64,000 nucleotides of DNA from an uncultured Latescibacterota bacterium (GCA_951812755.1 OX638329.1:3046522-3110521); one strand, 5' to 3'. Shown: positions 2,863 to 34,282, counted from the stretch's first letter. Made by a program: numbers and translations. Notes: generated by a model not told the origin, from the sequence alone.

Positions 2863-4638
2863 ATGGCAGAAGAGAGCAATACTGACAAGCTGCGCAAGCT
2901 CGCGCATTTTGTTACGCCTTACAAATCGCGCCTGATCTTGCTGTTTTGCCTGACGGCGACAATGACGGCACTGAGTATGCTGCCTCCTCTGGTGATGAAG
3001 TTTATCATCGATGATGTCATTACTATGGGGAATTGGCAGTTGCTGGAAGTGCTTTTGTTTATTTCGATTTGTCTGCCTATCACGTCCGCTGCGATGCGCG
3101 TTTGGGTCTCATTTACCAATGCCTATGTGGGGTGGGGGATAACGACGAGTATGCGGAAGTTCACGTATGAATACATGTTGAAATTGCCCATGCGCTTTTA
3201 CGACGAGATGGGGACGGGTAAAATTATGACGCGCATTATGTCTGATATTGCGAGTGTGCGCAGTATGGTAACGTCGCGCATGCTGGGCATTCTTGTTGAT
3301 TTTGTGTCGTTCTGGGTGGCGCTTGCGCTGTGTATGAGCTTGAATTGGAAGATGGGGTGTCTGCTACTTTTGCTGATGCCTTTGTATTTTTTTAATTATT
3401 ACGGGTGGCGCACGCCAATGAGGGAGTCGTACAGTCTCTGGCGCAGAAAAATGGATCAGGTGTCGGTTGGACTACAAGAGCGGTTGTCCGGGGTGCAACT
3501 GGTAAAATCTTATGGGCGAGAGCGCAGAGAACATCGCGCATTTGCGGAAGATACGCACCAGAGTTTGGATGCGGCAATGCAGACTGCCACAAATCGCGCG
3601 GGCTATATGGCTGGCTCCTGGGGGGTGTCGGGCCTTCGCAATACGGTGATTTTTTGTTTGGGCTGTTATTACGTGATTGAGGGTGAAATGACTTATGGGG
3701 CTGTGATGGCCTTTTTTTCTTATTCGAGCCGGATGTTTCAGCCCATTCTCAATCTCACGCAAATTGCCATGCGTCTTCAATCCGTGATGGTGTCTGTGGA
3801 TCGCGTTTTGGAAATTTTAGATTTTCCCATAGAGATTAAGGACAAGGAAGATGCTGTCGCATTGCCGCCTATAAAAGGACATATTAAATTTGAAGATGTG
3901 CATTTTGAATACAAAGAGGGGGAACCTGTTTTAAAGGGTATCAACCTCGAGGTGCAGCCGGGACAAATGGTGGCGCTGGTGGGGCACACGGGATGCGGCA
4001 AGACGACGTTGACGAGTTTGTTGATGCGATTTTACGATGTAAAGGAGGGGTGTATTACAATTGATGGTCACGATTTGCGAGATGTGAAGCTGCGGACCCT
4101 GCGTACTCAGATCGGCCAGGTGTTGCAAGATTCGGTGATGTTTGATGGGACGATTCGGGAGAATTTGCTATACGGTCGCGCAGATGCCACAGATGCCGAG
4201 CTGATTGAAGCGACGCGCATTGCCGAGATTCACGAATTTATTATGCGTACGCCCGAGGGTTACGATTCGATGTTGGGGAAGGATGGCATTAAGTTGTCTG
4301 TGGGAGAGAAACAGCGTCTCGCCATTGCGAGAGCCGTGCTGACCAACCCGTCGGTTTTAATTCTCGACGAGGCGACTTCGTCACTCGATTCCCTGTCGGA
4401 AGCTCTGATACAAAAGGCGATGACCAGGGTACTAAAAGGACGCACGTCCTTTGCGATTGCACACCGATTATCGACGATTGTCAATGCGGATATTATTGTT
4501 GTGATGGATCACGGCGAGATTGTGGAACAGGGGACGCACAGCGAGTTGTTGCAAATACCCGATGGAAGGTATCGCCAGCTTTACGAGCAGCAGGCTGCGG
4601 GTTCTATTGAAGAGGCTGTAGAGGCGATGGCGAGTTGA
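2863..4638 (+). CDS. ABC exporter half-transporter, subunit with canonical Walker B
   Basis: Inner-membrane ABC exporter subunit (591 aa) with a six-helix N-terminal membrane domain and a C-terminal ATPase. Seen: Walker A GHTGCGKTT near residue 374, the signature altered to LSVGEKQ near 478 (consensus LSGGQ), Walker B ending in LDEATSSLD with the catalytic Glu near 503, and the H-loop His in IAHRLST. The next gene starts 4 bases downstream and has the reciprocal defects. By analogy with heterodimeric exporters of the BmrCD/TM287-288 type, this subunit supplies the intact Walker A/B of the competent ATP site and the poor signature of the degenerate site. The substrate is unknown; lipid or drug export is typical of the family. 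Confidence 0.93.
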   Translation: MAEESNTDKLRKLAHFVTPYKSRLILLFCLTATMTALSMLPPLVMKFIIDDVITMGNWQLLEVLLFISICLPITSAAMRVWVSFTNAYVGWGITTSMRKFTYEYMLKLPMRFYDEMGTGKIMTRIMSDIASVRSMVTSRMLGILVDFVSFWVALALCMSLNWKMGCLLLLLMPLYFFNYYGWRTPMRESYSLWRRKMDQVSVGLQERLSGVQLVKSYGRERREHRAFAEDTHQSLDAAMQTATNRAGYMAGSWGVSGLRNTVIFCLGCYYVIEGEMTYGAVMAFFSYSSRMFQPILNLTQIAMRLQSVMVSVDRVLEILDFPIEIKDKEDAVALPPIKGHIKFEDVHFEYKEGEPVLKGINLEVQPGQMVALVGHTGCGKTTLTSLLMRFYDVKEGCITIDGHDLRDVKLRTLRTQIGQVLQDSVMFDGTIRENLLYGRADATDAELIEATRIAEIHEFIMRTPEGYDSMLGKDGIKLSVGEKQRLAIARAVLTNPSVLILDEATSSLDSLSEALIQKAMTRVLKGRTSFAIAHRLSTIVNADIIVVMDHGEIVEQGTHSELLQIPDGRYRQLYEQQAAGSIEEAVEAMAS

Positions 4639-4642
4639 GGTT

Positions 4643-6607
4643 ATGGAAAACTTAAAGCGATTTATCATTTTGTATATCAAGCCGTATTGGGGGCGCCTGT
4701 TGTTGGTCATTGCCATGGCCACTATTACGTCGTCCTATACGTTTTTGCTCGGGTTTATTTCAAAAATTACGGTTGACGAAGTCTTGCAACTCAAGCCTGC
4801 TGGTGAAGTTGTTTCAGAGGCACACATGCGGTCTTTGATTCAGGAGGAGACTCGTCCCAAGCGCGACCCACAGGCGACGATTCCGGGGCTGGGCAAAGAA
4901 GGCGGGATAATGCTGCCCAAAACGCGCACGGAAAAACTGGAATGGTTGGGGTGGATTTTCATTCTCTACCTGGTCGTGAGATCGTTTTTTGCCACGCTCA
5001 ACTGGTTTTATACGTATAGCATCGCCTATGTGGGGCAGCGGATTGTTTTCCGCATTCGCCTGGCTTTGCACGAGAAGGTGCAGCAGTTGCAGATGACGTT
5101 TTTTGATCGCCAGCAAACCGGGCGGATTATGGCGCGCATTTTGGATGATGTGGGGTTGTTGCAGAGCGAAATTACGACGACATTTGTAGAGACACTGCGG
5201 CATGTTGCGCGCATTTTGATGGGTACGGTGATTCTGTTTACGATTGATGTTGAGCTCGCACTGATGGCTTTTGTTGCATTGCCCGCGTATGTCGTGACCT
5301 ATAAGGTGTTTCAGCGTCCAATAGCAAATGTTTTTATGCGGTTTCGGGAGGATTATAGCGAGGTTTCTGCATTGCTGGAAGAACGCTCAAAGGGGATTCG
5401 TCTCATCCTGTCTTATGCGCGAGAAAGACGGGAGTTTCGGGACTTTTTCAGGCGTCTGATCGGGTTGTATCGGTTGGGCGTCAAACAGTCTGTTTTGAGT
5501 TCTGGTCTGGGGTCAGTCTGTTCGGTTGTGGGGGGGATTGCAATGGGCCTGATCTTTTATTTTGGCGCGTTGCAGGTTCGCGGCGGTGTGATGACGGTTG
5601 GGGAATTGGTTTATTTTAGTATGTCGATGGGGAATCTTTTTTCGCCACTGGTTGCACTTGCCAATGTGAATGCCACGCTGCAACAGATGCTGGTGGTGAT
5701 CAGTCGCGTGTTTGAGGTGCTGGATGAAGAGGTGATTATTCGGGATAGAGAAGATGCGAAGACCCTCGACAAAGTGCGTGGTCGCGTGTCGGTTCGCAAT
5801 GTGTCGTTTCGCTATACAGAGACGGGCGATTATGTCATAAGAAATCTCAATTTTGTCGTGCGGCCGGGCACTTCGGTGGCTGTGGTTGGGCCTTCGGGGT
5901 CGGGTAAGAGTACGCTGGTGAGTTTGTTGATGCGTCTTTATGAACCCACAGAGGGGAAAATTATTCTGGACGATTACGATATACAAGATGTCAAAATTTC
6001 TTCTCTGCGACAGCACATCAGTATGGTGCCTCAGGAACCCGTTCTGTTTTCCGGGACGATTGCCGATAATATTCGCTACGGTCAGTCCGATACCGCGCCA
6101 GAGCAGATAATGGCTGCGGCCCAGGCGGCTGAGTTGCACGATTTTATTATGACGCTGCCAGAAAAATACGAAGCGCCGGTCGAGGAGCGCGGTACCAATC
6201 TGTCGGGTGGTCAAAAACAGCGTCTGGCTTTTGCGATGGCTGTTGTCACCGATCCCAGTATTCTGATTTTAGACGATACGACTTCGGCACTGGATGCAAA
6301 GACAGAGGCGAAAATTCAAGAGACGCTGGATCATTTGATGGAGGGGCGCACGACGTTTGTGATTACGCACCGGATTTCTACGGCGATGCGGGCAGATCGC
6401 ATTCTGGTGCTGGACAACGGTCGCATGGCGGGCTGGGGTGTCCACGACGATTTGCTGGAAGAGTGCGAGGTCTATCGCTTGCTCTACGAACAGCAGCAAA
6501 AGCAGAAAGAAGACGCGGCAGATGAATTTATTGAGGGGATTATGACTGCGGTGGAAGAGGTTGAAAAGAGCGCGAAGGAATTACAAGCTACAGAAAAAAA
6601 TCGATAA
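4643..6607 (+). CDS. ABC exporter half-transporter, partner with degenerate Walker B
   Basis: Second subunit (654 aa) of the same exporter, 4 bases after the first and surely co-transcribed. Seen: Walker A GPSGSGKST near residue 416, a perfect LSGGQKQ signature near 520, but Walker B reads LDDTTSALD, so the catalytic Glu is Asp; the H-loop is ITHRIST. These features complement the partner, leaving one catalytic and one degenerate ATP site in a heterodimer. Between the first and second predicted helices is an extra hydrophilic stretch of roughly 60 residues (about 45-100), absent from the partner, which should face the periplasm. The C-terminal ~40 residues are charged and probably cytoplasmic. 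Function beyond export is not evident. Confidence 0.93.
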   Translation: MENLKRFIILYIKPYWGRLLLVIAMATITSSYTFLLGFISKITVDEVLQLKPAGEVVSEAHMRSLIQEETRPKRDPQATIPGLGKEGGIMLPKTRTEKLEWLGWIFILYLVVRSFFATLNWFYTYSIAYVGQRIVFRIRLALHEKVQQLQMTFFDRQQTGRIMARILDDVGLLQSEITTTFVETLRHVARILMGTVILFTIDVELALMAFVALPAYVVTYKVFQRPIANVFMRFREDYSEVSALLEERSKGIRLILSYARERREFRDFFRRLIGLYRLGVKQSVLSSGLGSVCSVVGGIAMGLIFYFGALQVRGGVMTVGELVYFSMSMGNLFSPLVALANVNATLQQMLVVISRVFEVLDEEVIIRDREDAKTLDKVRGRVSVRNVSFRYTETGDYVIRNLNFVVRPGTSVAVVGPSGSGKSTLVSLLMRLYEPTEGKIILDDYDIQDVKISSLRQHISMVPQEPVLFSGTIADNIRYGQSDTAPEQIMAAAQAAELHDFIMTLPEKYEAPVEERGTNLSGGQKQRLAFAMAVVTDPSILILDDTTSALDAKTEAKIQETLDHLMEGRTTFVITHRISTAMRADRILVLDNGRMAGWGVHDDLLEECEVYRLLYEQQQKQKEDAADEFIEGIMTAVEEVEKSAKELQATEKNR

Positions 6608-6635
6608 ACAAAGCAGCCGCGATCCAGTGTTTGTG

Positions 6636-6673
6636 AACTGTGAATGAGAAAATAATCCATTCACAGTTTTTTT
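6636..6673 (+). terminator. Rho-independent terminator after the ABC exporter pair
   Basis: An 11-bp inverted repeat (AACTGTGAATG / CATTCACAGTT) with an 11-base loop is followed by a run of Ts, 29 bases after the stop of the second ABC gene. Confidence 0.85.
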
Positions 6674-6780
6674 ATGCACCAATCCCAAAAACTACAAAAA
6701 AACAGAAATACGCAGTGGGAATCACATACGCATGGTTCCTCTCTTTGAGTAAGCTGGATCGCAAGAATAGAAAAACAAAA

Positions 6781-6813
6781 GGAGGTTCTTTCAGGCTTGC
6801 TGGAAGAACCTCC
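6781..6813. terminator. Hairpin in front of the M16 module
   Basis: A 10-bp perfect stem (GGAGGTTCTT / AAGAACCTCC, 6781-6790 and 6804-6813) has an A-rich left flank and a T-rich right flank, as a bidirectional terminator or leader hairpin would. No gene ends just before it other than the ABC pair, which already has a terminator, so a regulatory leader role is possible. Confidence 0.5.
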
Positions 6814-6874: not shown

Positions 6875-8326
6875 ATGATAAAAACTTACGCACTCATCTC
6901 ATTCCTTGCCTGCGTCTTGTCCAGTACCTGCTCGGCATACCAGCTTATTGGCACAGCCGCATTATCCGAAGAACTCATCGCGCAACACTACACTATCAAT
7001 CCCAGACTCGACGCTGTTATCGTTGTAGATCGAACAACTCCTACCTTTGAATACCAGACCTTTTACTGTGCCGGCTCGGCAGATGAAGAGGAAGGTGAAC
7101 AAGGACGACTACACTTCTTAGAGCATATTATCTCAGGTACTGGCAGCCATGAATATGGGCAACTCAAACAAATCATTAACGAGAATGGGGGACAATCAAA
7201 TGCCTTTACTTCTTCTCATATTACATACTTTGTAATGAGATTTCCAAAGGACAAATTTGATCTTGCAGTTGAGATAGACCGCGATAGATATTACCACACA
7301 GTGATCAATAAGGAAGTTGTTGAAAAGGAAAAGAGAATCGTACTGACGGAAAAAAGTCGTAATTCAGCAAACCCAAACAAAATTTTTTCCAATCGCTTTG
7401 GGGGCCTGGTCTATAAAAAAAAGAATTTTAGTGGCGTTGGGACTGAGGACTTTATTAAACAACTCGAAGCCGATGATTTGAAAGATTACTATGAAGATTT
7501 CCTGCGCCACCAGAAGAGATTGGTTGTGGTGATTGGCGATGTGGATATGGACCATGTCCTGACCAAACTGGACGAAGCTTATGGCAATGAGCAAATATCG
7601 AGTGAATGGCCCTCTTCGCAATTTTCCAAACCTGAAATACTCGGGGAAAAAATAAAAGATACTTCAAAAAATCTCCGTATTGCCAAATTCTGGAAAAGTT
7701 GGCAAACTCCCAATTTGGGCCATCGCGATTATGCGACCTTGCTCATTCTTGGTCGCATTATGACCAAAACCTCAAATTCCCTGCGATCTTCTGTGATTGA
7801 TGCTAAGCTCGCCCGGATTTTCAGGGTGTCGTTTAACCACTATAAAGGATTTAGTTTGCTGAGTTGCACGGCAGACCTGCCGCTCGACACTTCCATAGAG
7901 GCTATTGAGACCGCTATCCAAACAGAATTGGAGAAAATCAGAGCGCGTGGTGTCTCAGAGGATGAATTTACTGCGGCCCAAAATTTACATTTAAAGTCAA
8001 TGTATTCCGACTTTTACGACCGCTCAGACATGGCTCTTAAGTTCGGGCGGGCATTCGCCCATGCCAACGATCCCTTGCTATATCCAAAATTGATAAAAGA
8101 CCTCAAATCTGCCCGCAGAGACGACATCCCGCGCCTGGTAGATCAATACCTGATGGACGATAATTCGATAACGCTTTCTCTAACATTACCACAACAAGAA
8201 AAAACCTCCTTGAGAACCCTGTTATACTATGCGTTTATCTTCTGGGTATTAGCAGGTTTTGTATCGCTGGTGGGATGGGGGATAAGAAGATTAAGTTCTC
8301 CCGAAAGGCTATCCTCAAATGAATAG
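6875..8326 (+). CDS. M16 family zinc peptidase, membrane-anchored (module copy 1)
   Basis: Exported M16 (pitrilysin-type) metallopeptidase of 483 aa. The ATG at 6875 is chosen because it opens a typical signal peptide (MIKTYALISFLACVLSS...CSA) that matches the paralogue at 10729; an upstream in-frame ATG at 6797 would add unlike residues. Seen: the inverted zinc motif HFLEH at residues 80-84 and a Glu in VLTEKSR at 159, 75 residues later, the usual spacing for the third ligand. A C-terminal membrane helix (LLYYAFIFWVLAGFVSLVGW) is followed by basic residues, anchoring the peptidase to the inner membrane facing the periplasm. The next gene overlaps by 8 bases and encodes the inactive half. Inference: the two form one peptidase chamber. 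Substrate unknown. Confidence 0.88.
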   Translation: MIKTYALISFLACVLSSTCSAYQLIGTAALSEELIAQHYTINPRLDAVIVVDRTTPTFEYQTFYCAGSADEEEGEQGRLHFLEHIISGTGSHEYGQLKQIINENGGQSNAFTSSHITYFVMRFPKDKFDLAVEIDRDRYYHTVINKEVVEKEKRIVLTEKSRNSANPNKIFSNRFGGLVYKKKNFSGVGTEDFIKQLEADDLKDYYEDFLRHQKRLVVVIGDVDMDHVLTKLDEAYGNEQISSEWPSSQFSKPEILGEKIKDTSKNLRIAKFWKSWQTPNLGHRDYATLLILGRIMTKTSNSLRSSVIDAKLARIFRVSFNHYKGFSLLSCTADLPLDTSIEAIETAIQTELEKIRARGVSEDEFTAAQNLHLKSMYSDFYDRSDMALKFGRAFAHANDPLLYPKLIKDLKSARRDDIPRLVDQYLMDDNSITLSLTLPQQEKTSLRTLLYYAFIFWVLAGFVSLVGWGIRRLSSPERLSSNE

Positions 8327-9674
8327 ATTCCAGAGTGTAGTTTTTGGCCTTGTACTGTATTGTCTGTGTAGTATCTTGCCTGCTTTTGCAGAAGTTACCA
8401 ACCACCAAATTTTTTATCGCGAGGACAAACGCGCGCCATTGACCAAAATTGAAATCGTCTTTCTCGGAGCGGGAAGCAATCAGGCGCTTCCTACTCAGAG
8501 CGGGATTGCAAACACAGTCTCAAAGCTGATATGGGAGTCCGCAAAAAATCAGGGGCACATAGATCAACTGGCAGTATTAGGCACTGAGTTATATGTCTTT
8601 GCCAACACAACCTCCCTGACCATATCCATTTCTACCCTGTCCGAGAATTGCGCTGAGTCCATAGAAATAGTCCGCGATTTTATACACAACTTCGAGTTTT
8701 CTGAGTCTGATCTGGAAGATGTGAAAACGCGAGAGGTGACTAATTATCAGAATGATCGGGAAAGAAATACCGCTAATCTTATGAGAAATTTTGCACTTGC
8801 ACGAACAAAAGGCATAAAGAAACTCAGGTCCTTAAAAACGCTGAAAAACCTTTCTGCAAAGGACATCAGACAATATTATGCGCGGCTTCAGAAAACAGAA
8901 GTGGTGTTTTTTAAGGTACTCTCAAACCGAGATTCCACCGAGATTGCCAAAATGCTTCATCCAATTATAGAAAAACGCGAGACCCGACGACAGGCAGGTG
9001 GGTTTGTGCATTCATTGGAACCTTCAGAGGCCAATTATTATTTTGGTCCTTCGGCTTTTGTCTTTGAGAATTATTCAAACTTAAAGAACGTTTTCTGTTA
9101 TTGGTTGATCCCTTATGGGAGTATAGGTGAAACAAATTATATTTCCCCAATGATATCCATGACCCTTGGGCGACATGGTGCCCAAGGGTTGCTCTATAAA
9201 TATTTTAGAAAAGAGTTGGGACTGGTCTATGGTACTGCTTGCCATTATCGATCATCAAAAAATATCAGGTTTCTCGAAATTTATGCAGATCCCCAGTTAC
9301 AGAACAGCGAAGAATTGATCGCAAAAATGCTCGACTTCATCCGAGGCCTTTCCGATAATCCCCGCTTTTGGGAGAAAATAAAAGAATTGCGTGAGAATAG
9401 AAATGTCACCTATGCCCATGTCCATGAACGATTGACACCACAGCGAAGACTGGACAATGAGGTATATCGAGCCATCTATAATCCGCCAATCCGCAAAGGC
9501 GGTTATGATTCCATCACCGATACTGAGGTGCGTGCTTTTATCGAAAATTTTTTTGTGCCAGAAAATATGATCATGATCTTTGTCGGACCAAAGGATCACA
9601 TCATAGATATTCTAAATAAACACTTGCCTGAAGTTGATATTCGCGTTCACGATACCAAAGAATTGATTGAATAG
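8319..9674 (+). CDS. M16-like non-catalytic partner (module copy 1)
   Basis: Periplasmic M16-fold protein of 451 aa with a signal peptide (VVFGLVLYCLCSILPAFA). The N-terminal half has the M16 pattern of a beta-rich start followed by LSENCAESIEIVRDFIHN and helical stretches, but no HxxEH motif, as in the inactive subunit of bacterial M16 pairs. The C-terminal half contains GLLYKYFRKELGLVYG, like the conserved (L)r..LaY region of M16 C-terminal domains. It overlaps the catalytic gene by 8 bases (ATGAATAG), implying translational coupling and a stoichiometric complex. A close paralogue lies at 12176. No substrate can be named. Confidence 0.82.
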   Translation: MNRFQSVVFGLVLYCLCSILPAFAEVTNHQIFYREDKRAPLTKIEIVFLGAGSNQALPTQSGIANTVSKLIWESAKNQGHIDQLAVLGTELYVFANTTSLTISISTLSENCAESIEIVRDFIHNFEFSESDLEDVKTREVTNYQNDRERNTANLMRNFALARTKGIKKLRSLKTLKNLSAKDIRQYYARLQKTEVVFFKVLSNRDSTEIAKMLHPIIEKRETRRQAGGFVHSLEPSEANYYFGPSAFVFENYSNLKNVFCYWLIPYGSIGETNYISPMISMTLGRHGAQGLLYKYFRKELGLVYGTACHYRSSKNIRFLEIYADPQLQNSEELIAKMLDFIRGLSDNPRFWEKIKELRENRNVTYAHVHERLTPQRRLDNEVYRAIYNPPIRKGGYDSITDTEVRAFIENFFVPENMIMIFVGPKDHIIDILNKHLPEVDIRVHDTKELIE

Positions 9675-9730
9675 ATCCGCAGAAAAAACGCGAGTAATTT
9701 GAGCGTTTTACGCGGATGGACACAGATGGA
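9675..9730. repeat. CAGAT/CGCAG dispersed repeat directly after a stop codon
   Basis: ATCCGCAGAAAAAACGCG ... GAGCGTTTTACGCGG followed by ATGGACACAGATGGA starts in the base after the TAG of the preceding gene. The left part also occurs at 19993-20009 and, inverted, at 21031-21050. Confidence 0.7.
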
Positions 9731-9781
9731 AACCCGTAGGGCAAAGGACGTAGCAATAACCACTAACATGAGGAACCGACC

Positions 9782-10354
9782 GTGGAAGCGTTTATTATTA
9801 TGACCGTTCTCATTATCGTAGTCCTGGGAATTGGTGGACTCTTGGCAAAGCGTTTCTTTGGCTACTCCTGCTACGAGTGTGGATCCAAACTACAGCCCTT
9901 TGAAAAATTGTCCAATGATGATAAGGCCGATATTCTGGCGTATTTCAGACGTTTCGAGAATCGCGAGCCAGATGTGGAGTACATTTCCGTATGTGGTAAT
10001 TGTCGGCTTGTGTCCGGCGATTTTTCAAGATGGTACTGCAAGGTATGCGACTCTGCAGGTCTGGAGTATATAGGTGCCATGGTAGCTCCTGGCGAGTTGG
10101 TGAAATACCAGGAACAGAACAAAAACCTGGTCGAACAAATCGAGTGCCTGCGATGCAAAAGAAACCCTTCAGGACACTTGGACTGCATCCCCTGTGATAC
10201 AGAGATCAAGATAAAGGCTTGCCGACGTTGCTATTCAGTCCATGCACAGATGCCTGTTAATGGCAGTCGATACAGATTTCAGGTTCTGCTTTCGGACAAG
10301 ACAGAGCTCAAGAAGTCACCCGACTCAAAGTGGCGTGTATTTGAAGCTGAGTAA
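9782..10354 (+). CDS. Membrane-anchored six-CxxC protein (module copy 1)
   Basis: Unrecognised protein of 190 aa. The GTG at 9782 is chosen because GAGGA lies 7 bases upstream and the paralogue at 13578 has ATG at the same position. Seen: one N-terminal membrane helix (FIIMTVLIIVVLGIGGLLA), then six CxxC pairs (CYEC, CGNC, CKVC, CLRC, CIPC, CRRC), enough for about three zinc ribbons. If the helix inserts as an uncleaved anchor, the ribbons could be cytoplasmic or periplasmic; the sequence does not settle this. It follows the M16 pair by 107 bases in both module copies, so a functional link to the peptidases is inferred from conserved order only. Confidence 0.75.
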   Translation: MEAFIIMTVLIIVVLGIGGLLAKRFFGYSCYECGSKLQPFEKLSNDDKADILAYFRRFENREPDVEYISVCGNCRLVSGDFSRWYCKVCDSAGLEYIGAMVAPGELVKYQEQNKNLVEQIECLRCKRNPSGHLDCIPCDTEIKIKACRRCYSVHAQMPVNGSRYRFQVLLSDKTELKKSPDSKWRVFEAE

Positions 10355-10460
10355 ACAACCTTGCTCACCTCAGGCGGAGACATGTATCGCAGTTATACAA
10401 TCGTTTGTCGTATAAAGTAAAAAAAATAAAAAAATCTAACATACGAACAATAATTCTAAG

Positions 10461-10643
10461 AGACTGTTTTAAAACTCATTTTGCCCCTTCTCGGCGATGC
10501 GCTATTGCCCTGTCATTCTGAGCGGAGCGCAGCGGAGTCGAAGAATCTGCTACTGACGCAGGTGGAAAAGATGCTTCGGCTACGCTCAGCATGACAAAAC
10601 GCCGGACATGCGTAACATCAGGTATTAATTTTAAAACAGCTTC
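10461..10643. repeat. MITE-like hairpin element between the two M16 modules
   Basis: The outer inverted repeat is CTGTTTTAAAA (from 10464) with TTTTAAAACAG (to 10639). Inside, GTCATTCTGAGCG (10512-10524) pairs imperfectly with CGCTCAGCATGAC (10582-10594), and the core ending in ATGCGTAACATCAG matches the element at 34124-34282. The rest of the 374-base gap (10355-10728) shows no gene. Confidence 0.7.
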
Positions 10644-10728
10644 TAATATATGAGCAATCTTTTTTGATTGAAATTACAGGCGCGATGGTATTATCATAAA
10701 AAAGCCGCTGACAAGATCAGGATCAGAT

Positions 10729-12204
10729 ATGAAAAAAATTTATGCACTCATCTCATTCCTTGTATGCGTCTTGCCGACGGGCACTTGCGTTGCCTACGAT
10801 CTTGTTGGCACAGCCGCATTATCTGAAGAACTCGTCGCGCAACATTACACCATCAATCCTAACCTTGACGCCGTTATTGTTGTAGATCGAACAACTCCGA
10901 CCTTTGAATACCAGACCTTTTACTGTGCTGGATCAGCAGATGAAGCGGAAGGCCAACAAGGACGGCTACATTTCTTAGAGCATCTTATGTCAGGCCATGA
11001 CCAAATCGTTATTGAGAATGGAGGATATAAAAACGCTGCTACTTCTCATCATTATACGTACTTCATATTGAGATTTCCAAAGGGCAAACTTGACCTCGCA
11101 GTCGAGATAGACTCGGAAAGATATTACAGCACAGTGATCAATAAGGAGGTCATAGAAAAGGAAAAGAAAATCATATTGACAGAAAGAAGTCGTAGCTTAC
11201 CAAACTTAACACGCAGGTTTACAAATTATTTTTTTGGTTTAATCTATAAAAAGAAGAGTTTTAATGCCCTTGGTACTGAGATTTTTATTAAACAACTCGA
11301 ACCTGTTGGTTTGAAAGCGTATTATGAGAATTTTCTGCGTTTGCAAAAGAGATTGGTCGTTGTCATAGGCGATGTAGATGTCAACCAAGTCCTGACCAAA
11401 CTGGACGAAACTTATGGCAATGAGCAAATACCAGGCGAATTGTCAGACAAATTGCAGGCTTCTCAATTTTCCAACCCTGAAATACTGGGCAGAAAGTTCA
11501 GGATTACTTCACGGAATCTCAGTATTTCCAAGTTCAGGAAGAGTTGGTACACACCCAGTTTAGGCCATCGCGACTATGCGGGATTACTCATTCTGACTAC
11601 CATTTTAAACAAGACCGCAAATTCATTGACGTCTTATATAGTTGATTCTGAACTCGCGAGAGTTTTCATTGTGGGGCTTAGCTACTATAAAGGATTTGGT
11701 TTGATGAGTTGTGCGGCAGACCTACCACATGATACATCCTCAGATGCTATCCAGGCCATTATCCGTGTTGAATTAGAAAAGATAAAAGTCATCTCTGAAG
11801 ATGAACTTGATGCATCCCGTAATGAACTTTTGCATAGCATGTATTCCGAATTTTATGATCGCTCAAGCATGGCTGATTCATTTGGGCGAGCATTCGCCCA
11901 TGCCAACAATCCCTTGCTATATCCAAAATTACTAAAAAATATTAAATCCATTCGCAGAAAAGACATACCGCGCATCATTGATCAGTACCTGACGAATGAC
12001 AATTCGATAACCCTTTCCTTAACATTGCCTGCAAAAGAAGAACCATCATTAATAAAAAAATTAATGCCGCGAACTCCCTTACATTATGGAATTATGATAT
12101 TGATATTCGCAGGTTTTCTAACGCTGTTGATATGGAGTAAAAAAAAATTGCACAGAAAGTTCTCCCGAAAGGCCAATGAATATGTTGCTGAAAGTGATGC
12201 TTAG
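10729..12204 (+). CDS. M16 family zinc peptidase, membrane-anchored (module copy 2)
   Basis: Paralogue of the gene at 6875, 491 aa, with long identical stretches such as AALSEEL, AQHYTINP and VVDRTTPTFEYQTFYCAGSA. AGGA lies 7 bases before the ATG. Seen: signal peptide (MKKIYALISFLVCVLPTGTCVA), HFLEH at residues 81-85 and the downstream Glu in ILTERSR at 152. The spacing is 8 residues shorter than in copy 1 because the loop after the zinc helix is trimmed (SGHDQIVIENGG against SGTGSHEYGQLKQIINENGG). A C-terminal helix (LHYGIMILIFAGFLTLLIW) anchors it. Active-site residues are kept, so both copies look functional. The altered loop may change specificity; that is inference. Confidence 0.88.
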   Translation: MKKIYALISFLVCVLPTGTCVAYDLVGTAALSEELVAQHYTINPNLDAVIVVDRTTPTFEYQTFYCAGSADEAEGQQGRLHFLEHLMSGHDQIVIENGGYKNAATSHHYTYFILRFPKGKLDLAVEIDSERYYSTVINKEVIEKEKKIILTERSRSLPNLTRRFTNYFFGLIYKKKSFNALGTEIFIKQLEPVGLKAYYENFLRLQKRLVVVIGDVDVNQVLTKLDETYGNEQIPGELSDKLQASQFSNPEILGRKFRITSRNLSISKFRKSWYTPSLGHRDYAGLLILTTILNKTANSLTSYIVDSELARVFIVGLSYYKGFGLMSCAADLPHDTSSDAIQAIIRVELEKIKVISEDELDASRNELLHSMYSEFYDRSSMADSFGRAFAHANNPLLYPKLLKNIKSIRRKDIPRIIDQYLTNDNSITLSLTLPAKEEPSLIKKLMPRTPLHYGIMILIFAGFLTLLIWSKKKLHRKFSRKANEYVAESDA

Positions 12205-13507
12205 CTTTGCCCTGTGTCACCTATTTGGCGTCCTCCCCACTTCTGCCGAAATTCCCAACCACCATATTTTTTATCGCCAGGACAAACGCGCGCCACTGAC
12301 CAGTATTGAAATTGTCTTCCTCGGAGCAGGGAGAAACCAGGAACAGCCTTCTCAGATTGGGCTTGCAAACACAGTCTCAACATTGATTTGGGAGGCTGCC
12401 AAAAAGCAAGGGTACATGGATCAATTATCAGCATTAGGAGCCAATCTGGATATTATCACTCACCCTCTATATCAGGCAATATCCATTTCTGCCTTATCTG
12501 AGAACTGTGGCGAGTCTATAAAAATAGTCTGCGATTTCATGCATAACCTTGAATTTTCTGATTCCGACTTGCAATATTCAAAAAAACAAGAAGTGGCTGA
12601 CTACCAAAGTGACCTACGGATTAATACTTATAAGTTTATGAGAACCTCTGCGATTTCACAAATAACAGGGAAGAAGAAATTCAAGTCCTTAAAAACGCTG
12701 AAGAATCTCTCGCTTGAGGATGTTAGGCAATACTATGATCAATTGCTGAAAGCAGATGTGGTGTTTTTTAAGATAATCTCAAACCGCGATTCTACTGAGG
12801 TTGCGAAGTTGCTTCATCCGATTACAAAAGAACGACAACGGAGCGGGTTTGAGCATTCATTGAAATTCCCAACAACCGGTTCTAATATTGGCTTTAAGGC
12901 TTTTGTCTATACGGATTATTCACATTTAAAGAGTGTGTTCTGTCATTGGATGATTTTCTGTGGCAGTGTGGGGGAAGAAAATTATATTCCTAACCTCATA
13001 TCCGATACGCTTACAGGCGATGAACGAGGGCTAATTTCCAAATATTTTAGAGAAGAATTGGGGTTGGTTTATGGTCCTTCTTGTGCGATGTTGTCTTCAG
13101 AAGGCATCAGATATCTCAATATTTATGCTGATCCTCGGCTCCATAACAGCGAAGAATTGATCGTAAAAATGTCCGACTTTATCCGAGGGCTTTCCGATAA
13201 CCCCCGCTTTTGGGAGGCACTCAAAGAGCGCCGTAAGATTCTCAAAGTCTCTTATGTCCATAACTTGACACCCCAGCAAAGCCTTGACCGCGAGGTAAAT
13301 ATAGCTATTTACAACGCGCCATATCGCAAAGGCGGTTATGATTCCGTCACCGACGCTGAGGTGCGTACTTTTCTCGAAAAATTCTTTGTGCCGCAAAATA
13401 TGATCATGATCTTTCTCGGCCCGAAGGATCAGATTATAGACATCCTGAATAGACATTGGCCTGAAGTTGAGATTCATGAGGAAAGTGTGCAGAGTTTGAT
13501 TGAGTAG
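12176..13507 (+). CDS. M16-like non-catalytic partner (module copy 2)
   Basis: Paralogue of the gene at 8319, 443 aa, without HxxEH. The signal peptide is within MLLKVMLSFALCHLFGVLPTSA. It overlaps the catalytic gene by 29 bases, more than the 8 bases in copy 1; ATGs at 12176 and 12182 are both possible, the second having better spacing from AAAGG. Conserved blocks shared with copy 1 include FYR.DKRAPLT.IEIVFLGAG, SLKTLKNLS, FRGLSDNPRFWE (IRGLSDNPRFWE in both) and YRKGGYDS (IRKGGYDS in copy 1). Divergence is spread through the protein with no frameshift, so both copies appear maintained by selection. Confidence 0.82.
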   Translation: MNMLLKVMLSFALCHLFGVLPTSAEIPNHHIFYRQDKRAPLTSIEIVFLGAGRNQEQPSQIGLANTVSTLIWEAAKKQGYMDQLSALGANLDIITHPLYQAISISALSENCGESIKIVCDFMHNLEFSDSDLQYSKKQEVADYQSDLRINTYKFMRTSAISQITGKKKFKSLKTLKNLSLEDVRQYYDQLLKADVVFFKIISNRDSTEVAKLLHPITKERQRSGFEHSLKFPTTGSNIGFKAFVYTDYSHLKSVFCHWMIFCGSVGEENYIPNLISDTLTGDERGLISKYFREELGLVYGPSCAMLSSEGIRYLNIYADPRLHNSEELIVKMSDFIRGLSDNPRFWEALKERRKILKVSYVHNLTPQQSLDREVNIAIYNAPYRKGGYDSVTDAEVRTFLEKFFVPQNMIMIFLGPKDQIIDILNRHWPEVEIHEESVQSLIE

Positions 13508-13577
13508 ATGCAACCACAGAGGAACAGGGATAAAAACCCGTAGGCAGAGAACGTAGCAATAACATGAGGAACCGACC

Positions 13578-14177
13578 ATGGAAGCGTTTATTATTTTGAC
13601 CATTCTCATTATCGTATTCCTGGTGATCGGTGGCCGATGGGCAAAGAATTTCTTTGGCTGTTGCTGCCACGAGTGCGGAACCAAAATGCAGCCTTATGAA
13701 CAATTGTCCGATAGTGATAAGTCCGATATTCTGGAATACTTCAGACGTTTTGAGGACCGCGAGCCAGACGTGGATGGCATTTTCGCGTGTGGGAATTGCC
13801 TGCTGGTGTACGATGACTTTTCAGGCGAAAAGCGAACGATGGATGGTGACGAAATGTCATTCTGCAAGGTGTGCAACTCTTCAGGTGTATCGTATATAGG
13901 CCCCATGTCTTCTGGCGATTTGGAGAAATTCCAGGAACGGAACCAAAACCGGATTGAACAAATCGAGTGTCTGCGATGCAAAAGAAAACCTATGGGGATT
14001 TGGGACTGTGTTCCATGCGACACAGAGATCAAGATAACGGCTTGCAGGCGTTGCTATTCGATCTATGCTCAGATGCCCGTTAATGGCAGTCGATACAGAT
14101 TTCAGGTCTTGCTTTCGGACAAGACGATAATCAAGGACTCACCCGATTCAAGGTGGGGGCTATTTGAAGCTGAGTAA
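13578..14177 (+). CDS. Membrane-anchored six-CxxC protein (module copy 2)
   Basis: Paralogue of the protein at 9782, 199 aa. GAGGA lies 7 bases before the ATG, and the preceding ~35 bases are nearly the same in the two copies. Seen: N-terminal helix (FIILTILIIVFLVIGG), then the same six CxxC pairs (CHEC, CGNC, CKVC, CLRC, CVPC, CRRC) and a conserved end (VNGSRYRFQVLLSDKT...DSRWGLFEAE). An insert of about 9 residues (GEKRTMDGDEMS) precedes CKVC. All twelve ligand cysteines survive in both copies, which argues that metal binding matters. Function not recognised. Confidence 0.75.
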   Translation: MEAFIILTILIIVFLVIGGRWAKNFFGCCCHECGTKMQPYEQLSDSDKSDILEYFRRFEDREPDVDGIFACGNCLLVYDDFSGEKRTMDGDEMSFCKVCNSSGVSYIGPMSSGDLEKFQERNQNRIEQIECLRCKRKPMGIWDCVPCDTEIKITACRRCYSIYAQMPVNGSRYRFQVLLSDKTIIKDSPDSRWGLFEAE

Positions 14178-14278: not shown

Positions 14279-15058
14279 TCAAACTTTCCCTTGCTCGAGC
14301 AATTTGAGAAAGGTCTCGTCTTCGCCCAGGTAGCGTTTTTCGCACAGGTCGCAATCGAGGCAGGAGCGTTCGTAGCAGTTTTTGTGAATGCGAATGGGGT
14401 ATTGTTTTTGGAAGGCTTCGTTGCATTTGCTTGAACAGAAGACATAGCGCATCTGGGTGGTGCCGAAGGCCGCATAGACAATGATATTTTCATCACCATC
14501 ATCTGCGAGCGATTTTTCGCACCAACTGCATATTCCCGTTTCTTCTTTTGCGCGGGATTCGCGTTTGCGCTGGACTTCTTCGTCGGTCCAGGAAAATTCG
14601 ATGTATTCGACATTTTCTTTGGGCACTTTGGCGCGAACAACGCCATTTGTGATGCCGAGTACAAAGTCGCCTTTGGTGTCGAATGTGGTGCCGCATTCGA
14701 TGGTGCGCCCACTTTGCAGGTGGATGTGAGATTTGCCCTCTTCGGGCGAGATGAATGAAAACCAACCGCAACTGGAACACACAGTTGTAAAGAGAAATTG
14801 CCGCAGTGTTTTGTGGCCACAGGATGGACAGTGGCCCTCTTGCATGAGTCTCAGATCGCGCAGGGAGGCTCTGGCGGCTTCTCTTACGGTTTCATTAACT
14901 TCGTCAAGGGCTTCGTCGAGTTCATCTTGATCCTCTTGTGCGAGGAGGTCCATGGCTTCCTGAACGTGCTCGTCTTGCCCTTCGATGTGGATTTGTCTTT
15001 CTTTTGTTGTACCATTTTCTGGTTCTTCGTCATTTTTATTAAAAAAGCGTTTCAACAT
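14279..15058 (-). CDS. Acidic zinc-ribbon protein of unknown function
   Basis: Soluble 259-residue protein without signal peptide. The ATG at 15058 is preferred over the in-frame GTG at 15070 because AGGA lies 5 bases before it. Seen: an acidic, helical region near residues 20-70 (EDQDELDEALDEVNETVREAA), then CPSC...CSSC, a ribbon; a beta-rich middle; then CSWC, CSSKC and CERSCLDCDLC. The segment IVYAAFGTTQMRYVFCSSKCNEAFQKQ resembles the MYM/TRASH-type treble-clef pattern (FCSxxCxxxF). It lies tail to tail with the M16/CxxC modules but shares no obvious sequence with their CxxC proteins. No function is assigned. Confidence 0.7.
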   Translation of the reverse strand: MLKRFFNKNDEEPENGTTKERQIHIEGQDEHVQEAMDLLAQEDQDELDEALDEVNETVREAARASLRDLRLMQEGHCPSCGHKTLRQFLFTTVCSSCGWFSFISPEEGKSHIHLQSGRTIECGTTFDTKGDFVLGITNGVVRAKVPKENVEYIEFSWTDEEVQRKRESRAKEETGICSWCEKSLADDGDENIIVYAAFGTTQMRYVFCSSKCNEAFQKQYPIRIHKNCYERSCLDCDLCEKRYLGEDETFLKLLEQGKV

Positions 15059-15108
15059 TTGAGTCCTCACTTGAAAGCGTAGAATTACGATGTTTTATGC
15101 TTACTTAT

Positions 15109-34123: not shown

Positions 34124-34282
34124 AACTGACGTTACGCATAGGTACAATATCATACGCCTGTCATTTTGAGCGGAGCGCAGCGGAGTCGAAAAATCTACGA
34201 CCAACGCAGGTGGAACAGATGCTTCGGCTCCGTTTCACTCCGCTCAGCATGACAAAAACACCAGACATGCGTAACATCAGTT
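34124..34282. repeat. 159-bp MITE-like hairpin element
   Basis: Terminal inverted repeats AACTGACGTTACGCAT (34124-34139) and ATGCGTAACATCAGTT (34267-34282) match at 15 of 16 positions. The core GTCATTTTGAGCGGAGCGCAGC...CGCTCAGCATGAC is shared with 10512-10594. The direct repeat AGGAATTAAAAAT flanks it on both sides (34107-34119 and 34284-34296, approximately), as a target duplication or chance pairing of dispersed tracts. It contains no gene. Confidence 0.75.

What the first reader, a model, noticed from the sequence alone, without database searches (positions are those of the whole stretch)
6875..14177. Tandemly duplicated M16 peptidase pair with a six-CxxC membrane protein
Seen: the order catalytic M16 with a C-terminal membrane helix, M16-like partner without HxxEH, and a membrane-anchored protein with six CxxC pairs occurs twice head to tail with clear paralogy in all three genes, and both copies keep zinc ligands, signal peptides and all cysteines. 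Known: M16 enzymes act as active/inactive pairs in bacteria. Inference: a periplasmic, membrane-tethered peptide-processing or degradation machine with a metal or redox accessory. I know no described system with this third component. The modules differ in the loop after the zinc helix, which could mean different substrates.
Basis: partly seen in the sequence, partly recalled or inferred. Interest (0 to 1): 0.78.

Follow-up and report, generated by a model that had tools for sequence, protein, structure and literature searches.

The report
Orphaned peptide-export cassettes with paired proteases
Two side-by-side copies of a paired metalloprotease, each followed by a small zinc-ribbon-like membrane protein, turn out to be the protease ends of a cassette that in sister species also carries a gene for a secreted, very acidic peptide with a bacteriocin-type export signal; in this sponge-bacterium genome that peptide gene has been lost but the proteases are still kept.

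Summary
In detail: two diverged A-B-C modules lie at 6875-14177 (A1/A2 67%, B1/B2 60%, C1/C2 69% identical; dN/dS about 0.3). They are not an assembly duplication.

A and B are an M16B pair: A has HFLEH...E; B lacks HxxEH but keeps R-x-E-L-G-L-x-Y.

The CxxC protein C is not an obligate third component. The same genome has two more intact A/B pairs without C. Sister genomes carry C without A/B, and class-level C homologues have no M16 neighbours. Helix-flanking charges put its cysteines in the cytoplasm, as zinc ribbons, against a periplasmic redox role.

The new finding lies outside the window. In three sister species the gene 76-255 bp 5' of A encodes a precursor with a double-glycine leader and a very acidic core. 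At one locus type (three sister species) the modules adjoin a C39-peptidase ABC exporter, HlyD and a PpiC-like protein. A conserved hairpin precedes A in these cassettes. Window module 1 keeps it without the precursor; module 2 lacks 2.0 kb that in G010 holds precursor and hairpin.

Best reading: relics of an exported-peptide cassette whose inner-membrane-tethered M16 pair cleaves the peptide in the periplasm, for self-protection rather than maturation (inferred).

The parts
6615..6779 (+). Leader region of module 1; its first part (6630-6731) matches the sequence just upstream of a precursor-gene remnant in G010, the remnant itself (L067 8802-8931) is replaced by about 48 bp here; the same version is found in G002
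   Evidence: blastn and pairwise alignments
6781..6813 (+). Conserved 14-pair hairpin that in sister species lies between the precursor gene and M16-A; scored terminator-like, but its U-tract is weak
   Evidence: terminator scan; nhmmer profile, present 37-78 bp before A in 11 of 15 cassette-type A genes, 0 of 16 others; compensating changes in 3 pairs
6875..8326 (+). A1: catalytic M16B peptidase, HFLEH (residues 80-84) and Glu159, N-terminal signal-like segment, C-terminal membrane helix
8319..9674 (+). B1: M16 partner without HxxEH, with the R/Y element RKELGLVY, secreted
9782..10354 (+). C1: single N-terminal membrane helix and six CxxC pairs, predicted N-out/C-in
   Evidence: sub-threshold zinc-ribbon match
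10355..10728 (+). Spacer between modules: post-C1 sequence to 10716, then A2 leader from 10719; 2.03 kb of G010 (L067 10391-12422: response-regulator/AraC-type gene, precursor gene, hairpin) is absent here; a palindromic interspersed element sits at 10511-10596
   Evidence: gene content of L067
10729..12204 (+). A2: catalytic M16B peptidase, HFLEH (residues 81-85) and Glu152, 8-residue deletion after the zinc helix, C-terminal membrane helix
12176..13507 (+). B2: M16 partner without HxxEH, R/Y element REELGLVY, secreted
13578..14177 (+). C2: single N-terminal membrane helix and six CxxC pairs, predicted N-out/C-in
2863..6607 (+). Flank, not claimed as part: ABC exporter pair without a C39 domain, conserved beside the locus in G002 and G010

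Best explanation
Each module is the protease part of a cassette 'precursor peptide - hairpin - M16-A - M16-B (- C)' that moves and duplicates within this genus of Latescibacterota. A and B form an M16B clamshell tethered to the outer face of the inner membrane by the C-terminal helix of A. Its natural substrate is the exported acidic peptide of the cassette or of its relatives: a C39-peptidase ABC exporter cuts the precursor after its double glycine and, with HlyD, carries it out; the M16 pair degrades peptide that is in, or returns to, the periplasm (self-protection or clearance) or, less likely, trims it. In this genome the precursor genes are gone from both modules, which remain as orphan proteases. 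C is a separately acquired, cytoplasm-facing zinc-ribbon-like membrane protein, not a catalytic part. Shown: gene content, motifs, cassette structure in relatives, the gaps in the window, purifying selection. Inferred: substrate, cleavage, purpose, and that the gap is a loss here and not a gain in G010.
For: M16B motifs split between A and B as in solved heterodimers. All nine strong leader matches in 47 genomes lie beside M16 genes, and seven A genes have the precursor (or its remnant) 76-255 bp 5' on the same strand. In G004, G008 and G009 the module's C gene runs into a cNMP-C39-ABC exporter, HlyD and a PpiC/TIGR04500-like protein. Conserved hairpin between precursor and A, kept in window module 1. 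Junction upstream of A2 lacking 2.0 kb that hold precursor and hairpin in G010. A, B and C under purifying selection. Related leader-bearing precursors beside C39 exporters elsewhere in this genome, so possible substrates exist in trans. Precedent: AlbE/AlbF, an M16B pair serving a bacteriocin precursor (PMC12731061).
Against: No precursor of the M16-linked subfamily in this genome. Precursors next to M16 in only three of eleven genomes of the genus. A/B pairs at loci I and II and in the sister family stand without precursor, hairpin or C, so the pair has a role without them. Cores of 109-144 residues are large for an M16 chamber. No charge complementarity found. No biochemical evidence.
Confidence: 0.45

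Rival explanations
1. General periplasmic peptide-degrading M16B pairs (protein turnover or nutrient peptides) that multiplied in this genus; the precursor genes in three species are later passengers.
For: A/B without precursor, hairpin and C at loci I and II in most genomes of the genus, and single-copy A/B in the sister family. SPH2681/SPH2682 cleaves a range of peptides (PMC12731061).
Against: Exact and repeated placement of precursor and hairpin 5' of A in several genomes and of the exporter set at one locus type; window module 1 keeps the hairpin, so it once shared that layout.
Confidence: 0.3
2. Maturation protease: the M16 pair removes part of the precursor to make the active peptide, as AlbE/AlbF does for subtilosin.
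For: Gene order precursor-A-B and the AlbE/AlbF precedent (PMC12731061).
Against: The leader already has a C39 cleavage site and a C39 exporter; A and B carry signal-like segments and A a membrane anchor, so they meet the peptide only outside the cytoplasm; modules are retained without precursor. A/B without precursors are common.
Confidence: 0.15
3. One reading: an obligate three-part periplasmic machine with C as metal or redox accessory.
For: About ten of 16 C copies in the genus directly follow a B gene.
Against: A/B without C at loci I and II; C without A/B in G002, G003 and other families; C types exchanged between A/B types (window A1B1-C1 and A2B2-C2, G007 A2B2-C1 and A1B1-C2); cytoplasmic topology of the cysteines.
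Confidence: 0.05

Closest known systems
M16B heterodimers SPH2681/SPH2682 (PDB 3amj) and TTHA1264/TTHA1265
   Same: Two about 45-50 kDa chains from adjacent genes, HxxEH...E in one only, R/Y element in the other; best PDB sequence matches of A and, weakly, of B
   Different: Here A has a C-terminal membrane anchor in most copies, the pair is multi-copy, and in sister species it follows a precursor-peptide gene
AlbE/AlbF of subtilosin A biosynthesis
   Same: An active/inactive M16B pair encoded with a bacteriocin precursor (PMC12731061)
   Different: A and B here carry signal-like segments; the leader is of double-glycine type with its own C39 exporter; no radical SAM belongs to the cassette itself; the window has no precursor
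Double-glycine peptide exporters of HetC type (cNMP domain, C39 peptidase, ABC)
   Same: Exporter in G004, G008 and G009 has a cNMP-binding domain, C39 peptidase and ABC modules like HetC (PMC10986499)
   Different: Here with HlyD and a PpiC/TIGR04500-like gene and next to M16 pairs; not adjacent to the modules in the window
FusC/PqqL import-linked periplasmic M16 proteases
   Same: Periplasmic M16B enzymes (PMC12731061; PMC6793856, abstract)
   Different: Single-chain enzymes linked with import; none of the neighbours examined here was identified as an outer-membrane importer

Membership tests
M16B heterodimeric metallopeptidase | HxxEH and a third Glu ligand in one subunit | tested here: met
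   HFLEH in 24 of 24 full-length A; Glu at +75 (A1) and +67 (A2) from the second His
M16B heterodimeric metallopeptidase | Partner of M16 fold without HxxEH, carrying the R/Y element | tested here: met
   Pfam M16 domains in B1/B2; RKELGLVY and REELGLVY; R/Y role from PMC12731061. The motif was read by pattern, not by structure superposition
M16B heterodimeric metallopeptidase | Physical heterodimer with peptidase activity | not testable with these tools
   No complex prediction offered; single-chain model of A2 had pLDDT 31
Double-glycine exported-peptide cassette | Precursor gene with double-glycine leader beside the module, in the window | tested here: not met
   Leader searches of the own genome found none beside the modules; met in G004, G009 and G010
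Double-glycine exported-peptide cassette | C39-peptidase ABC exporter with HlyD beside the module | tested here: not met
   Not in the window; met in G004, G008 and G009
AlbE/AlbF-type RiPP maturation | Radical SAM enzyme acting on the cassette precursor | tested here: inconclusive
   A SPASM radical SAM lies next to the cassette in G004 and G009, but it has its own small precursor there and at most of its other loci
Zinc-ribbon protein (for C) | Paired CxxC knuckles and a match to a zinc-ribbon family | tested here: inconclusive
   Six CxxC pairs, four to six kept in most distant homologues; only sub-threshold DZR match, E 0.0075; model unusable
Obligate three-gene M16-M16-CxxC system | C always follows the M16 pair | tested here: not met
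   Pairs without C and C without pairs

The most novel reading that the evidence does not exclude
A polymorphic exported-peptide system in which an inner-membrane-tethered periplasmic M16B heterodimer is the immunity or clearance factor for a large, very acidic double-glycine peptide, and in which orphan M16 modules such as the window's are retained after loss of the peptide gene, as orphan immunity genes are.
Probability: 0.28. Interest if true: 0.68.

Novelty: new variant of a known kind. Interest (0 to 1): 0.5.

Why it matters
M16B pairs are common in bacteria, but their substrates are mostly unknown. A set of cassettes in which variable precursor genes sit directly before M16 pairs names candidate substrates and makes the question testable with a handful of proteins. 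It would also add a protease-based route to self-protection against exported peptides, in a sponge-associated phylum with few experimental handles.

Tried and rejected
Assembly duplication: rejected (71-86% DNA identity, both module types in other genomes). AlphaFold of C2 (pLDDT 39) and A2 (pLDDT 31) gave no usable folds, so no fold search was run. The flanking ABC pair 2863-6607 as cognate exporter: kept only as a flank, since it has no C39 domain and is conserved beside the locus in G002 and G010. The radical SAM enzyme as part of the cassette: not accepted, because it has its own small precursor at most of its loci. Defence system: no PADLOC match. Plasmid carriage of C: no match. Charge complementarity between A/B and the acidic cores: no consistent pattern. 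Precursor remnants inside the window by weak tblastn: none near the modules.

Full report
Setting. The window is 3,046,522-3,110,521 of a 6.53-Mb single-contig genome. The nearest named records are MAGs labelled Candidatus Latescibacterota; that they are sponge-associated is my inference from the phylum's known habitat (PMC12993501) and was not checked in the records.

Observation. The six genes are as described. Paralogous proteins are 67% (A), 60% (B) and 69% (C) identical, with dN/dS 0.34, 0.29 and 0.35. DNA blocks are 71-86% identical at a nearly constant spacing of about 3.84 kb. Both copies have relatives in independent genomes, so they are real, old duplicates. A2 differs from A1 by an eight-residue deletion just after HFLEH; the G010 orthologue shares the resulting 67-residue spacing, and four locus II proteins have a spacing of 70.

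What A and B are. A matches solved M16B enzymes (4nnz; 3amj, SPH2681) over most of its length. B matches the inactive subunit of 3amj weakly. A has HFLEH and the third Glu. B has neither, but keeps R-x-E-L-G-L-x-Y, the R/Y element that completes the site in M16 partners (R/Y: PMC12731061). In 19 of 24 full-length copies A ends in a hydrophobic helix with a basic tail, which fits a type I anchor with the protease domain outside.

What C is. C has one N-terminal helix and six CxxC pairs. In all 20 homologues with an N-terminal helix the segment before it has no Lys/Arg and the segment after it has 1-4, so by the positive-inside rule the cysteines face the cytoplasm. Only a sub-threshold zinc-ribbon match was found. 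The model was too poor to fold-search.

Is C part of the system? This genome has two further intact A/B pairs, at 0.28 and 2.65 Mb, plus a B with a truncated A beside the latter, all without C. The same two sites hold A/B without C in G002, G005, G006, G007 and G009, in different combinations. C stands without an adjacent pair in G002 and G003, and in G010 beside an A remnant and a small transposase-like gene. It occurs in other families with unrelated neighbours. C types are exchanged between A/B types among genomes. C is therefore a frequent companion, not a required subunit.

The missing partner. In G004, G009 and G010 small genes directly 5' of A encode proteins with a common leader (consensus ...TCKPLAILSETISPQEMSxxRGG) and cores of 109-144 residues with net charge -30 to -51. 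All nine strong leader matches lie beside M16 genes. In G004 the order is radical SAM, precursor, A, B, three precursors, A, B, a small unknown gene, C, then a cNMP-C39-ABC exporter, HlyD and a PpiC-like protein related to TIGR04500; G008 and G009 share the C-exporter-HlyD-PpiC part. A broader leader profile finds related precursors beside C39 exporters through the genus and order, including three in the window's own genome at 2.53 and 5.21 Mb, not beside M16 genes.

The trace in the window. A 33-nt hairpin at 6781-6813 has homologues 37-78 bp before A in 11 of 15 cassette-type A genes. It is absent before all 16 A genes of loci I and II and of the sister family; two of the 16 were assigned to locus I afterwards by 91-94% DNA identity. 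Cassette type was assigned by me from locus, precursor and C, and Fisher p = 5e-5 was computed on 15 and 14 genes and ignores relatedness. The hairpin shows compensating changes in three pairs. In G010 and the other precursor loci it lies between precursor and A. In the window the hairpin is kept, but the stretch holding the precursor remnant in G010 is not; G002 shares the window's version. Upstream of A2 the window passes directly from post-C1 sequence (to 10716) to the A2 leader (from 10719), skipping 2.03 kb that in G010 hold a response-regulator/AraC-type gene, an intact precursor and the hairpin. Loss in the window is the simpler reading, because module 1 keeps the hairpin, but no outgroup fixes the direction.

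Mechanism. I infer that the pair acts on the exported peptide outside the inner membrane. A C39 exporter with HlyD should carry peptide past the periplasm, so a tethered periplasmic protease would mostly meet peptide that returns. With the retention of precursor-less modules under purifying selection, this favours self-protection or clearance over maturation. AlbE/AlbF is the nearest precedent for an M16B pair serving a bacteriocin precursor (PMC12731061). None of this has been tested biochemically.

Novelty. Literature searches of the held library gave no description of this cassette; subscription papers are mostly not in it. A study of sponge-associated Latescibacterota reports ranthipeptide and RiPP-like clusters, and a text search of it found no mention of M16 (PMC12993501). 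The parts are known kinds; their combination is a new variant.

Noticed in passing
L133:9720-11383 and L134:9380-10816 (own genome); L137, L138, L140, L141, L143 and others: A SPASM radical SAM enzyme (nearest NCBIfam models: SCIFF and quinohemoprotein maturases, PapB below cut-off) with its own small precursor ending in P-F-P-(D/N)-D-D-D-W-D-D-F-D-Q-A-D; it is present in most genomes of the genus and looks like a ranthipeptide-type system.
   Followed up: partly
L135:8612-14803 and L136:6980-15192 (own genome, 2.53 and 5.21 Mb): Two further export sets: leader-bearing small genes, cNMP-C39-ABC exporter, HlyD and PpiC-like protein, next to glycosyltransferase-like genes.
   Followed up: partly
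window 10511-10596 and 34159-34254: Palindromic interspersed element with ends TGTCATTCTGAGCG / CGCTCAGCATGACA, far above chance; one copy sits in the spacer between the two modules.
   Followed up: no
window 14279-15070 (-): Another cysteine-rich protein just downstream, 94-98% conserved as the flank of this locus in G002, G004 and G009; no family match above cut-off.
   Followed up: no
L057:6282-6679 (own genome, 2.649 Mb): A truncated M16-A (both ends joined, middle missing) followed by an intact B and then an intact A/B pair: ongoing birth and decay of these modules.
   Followed up: partly
L069:10770-11171, L060:9549-9959: A small conserved protein (133-136 aa, no Pfam or NCBIfam match in the copy tested) between B or the hairpin and C in G004 and G002.
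   Followed up: no
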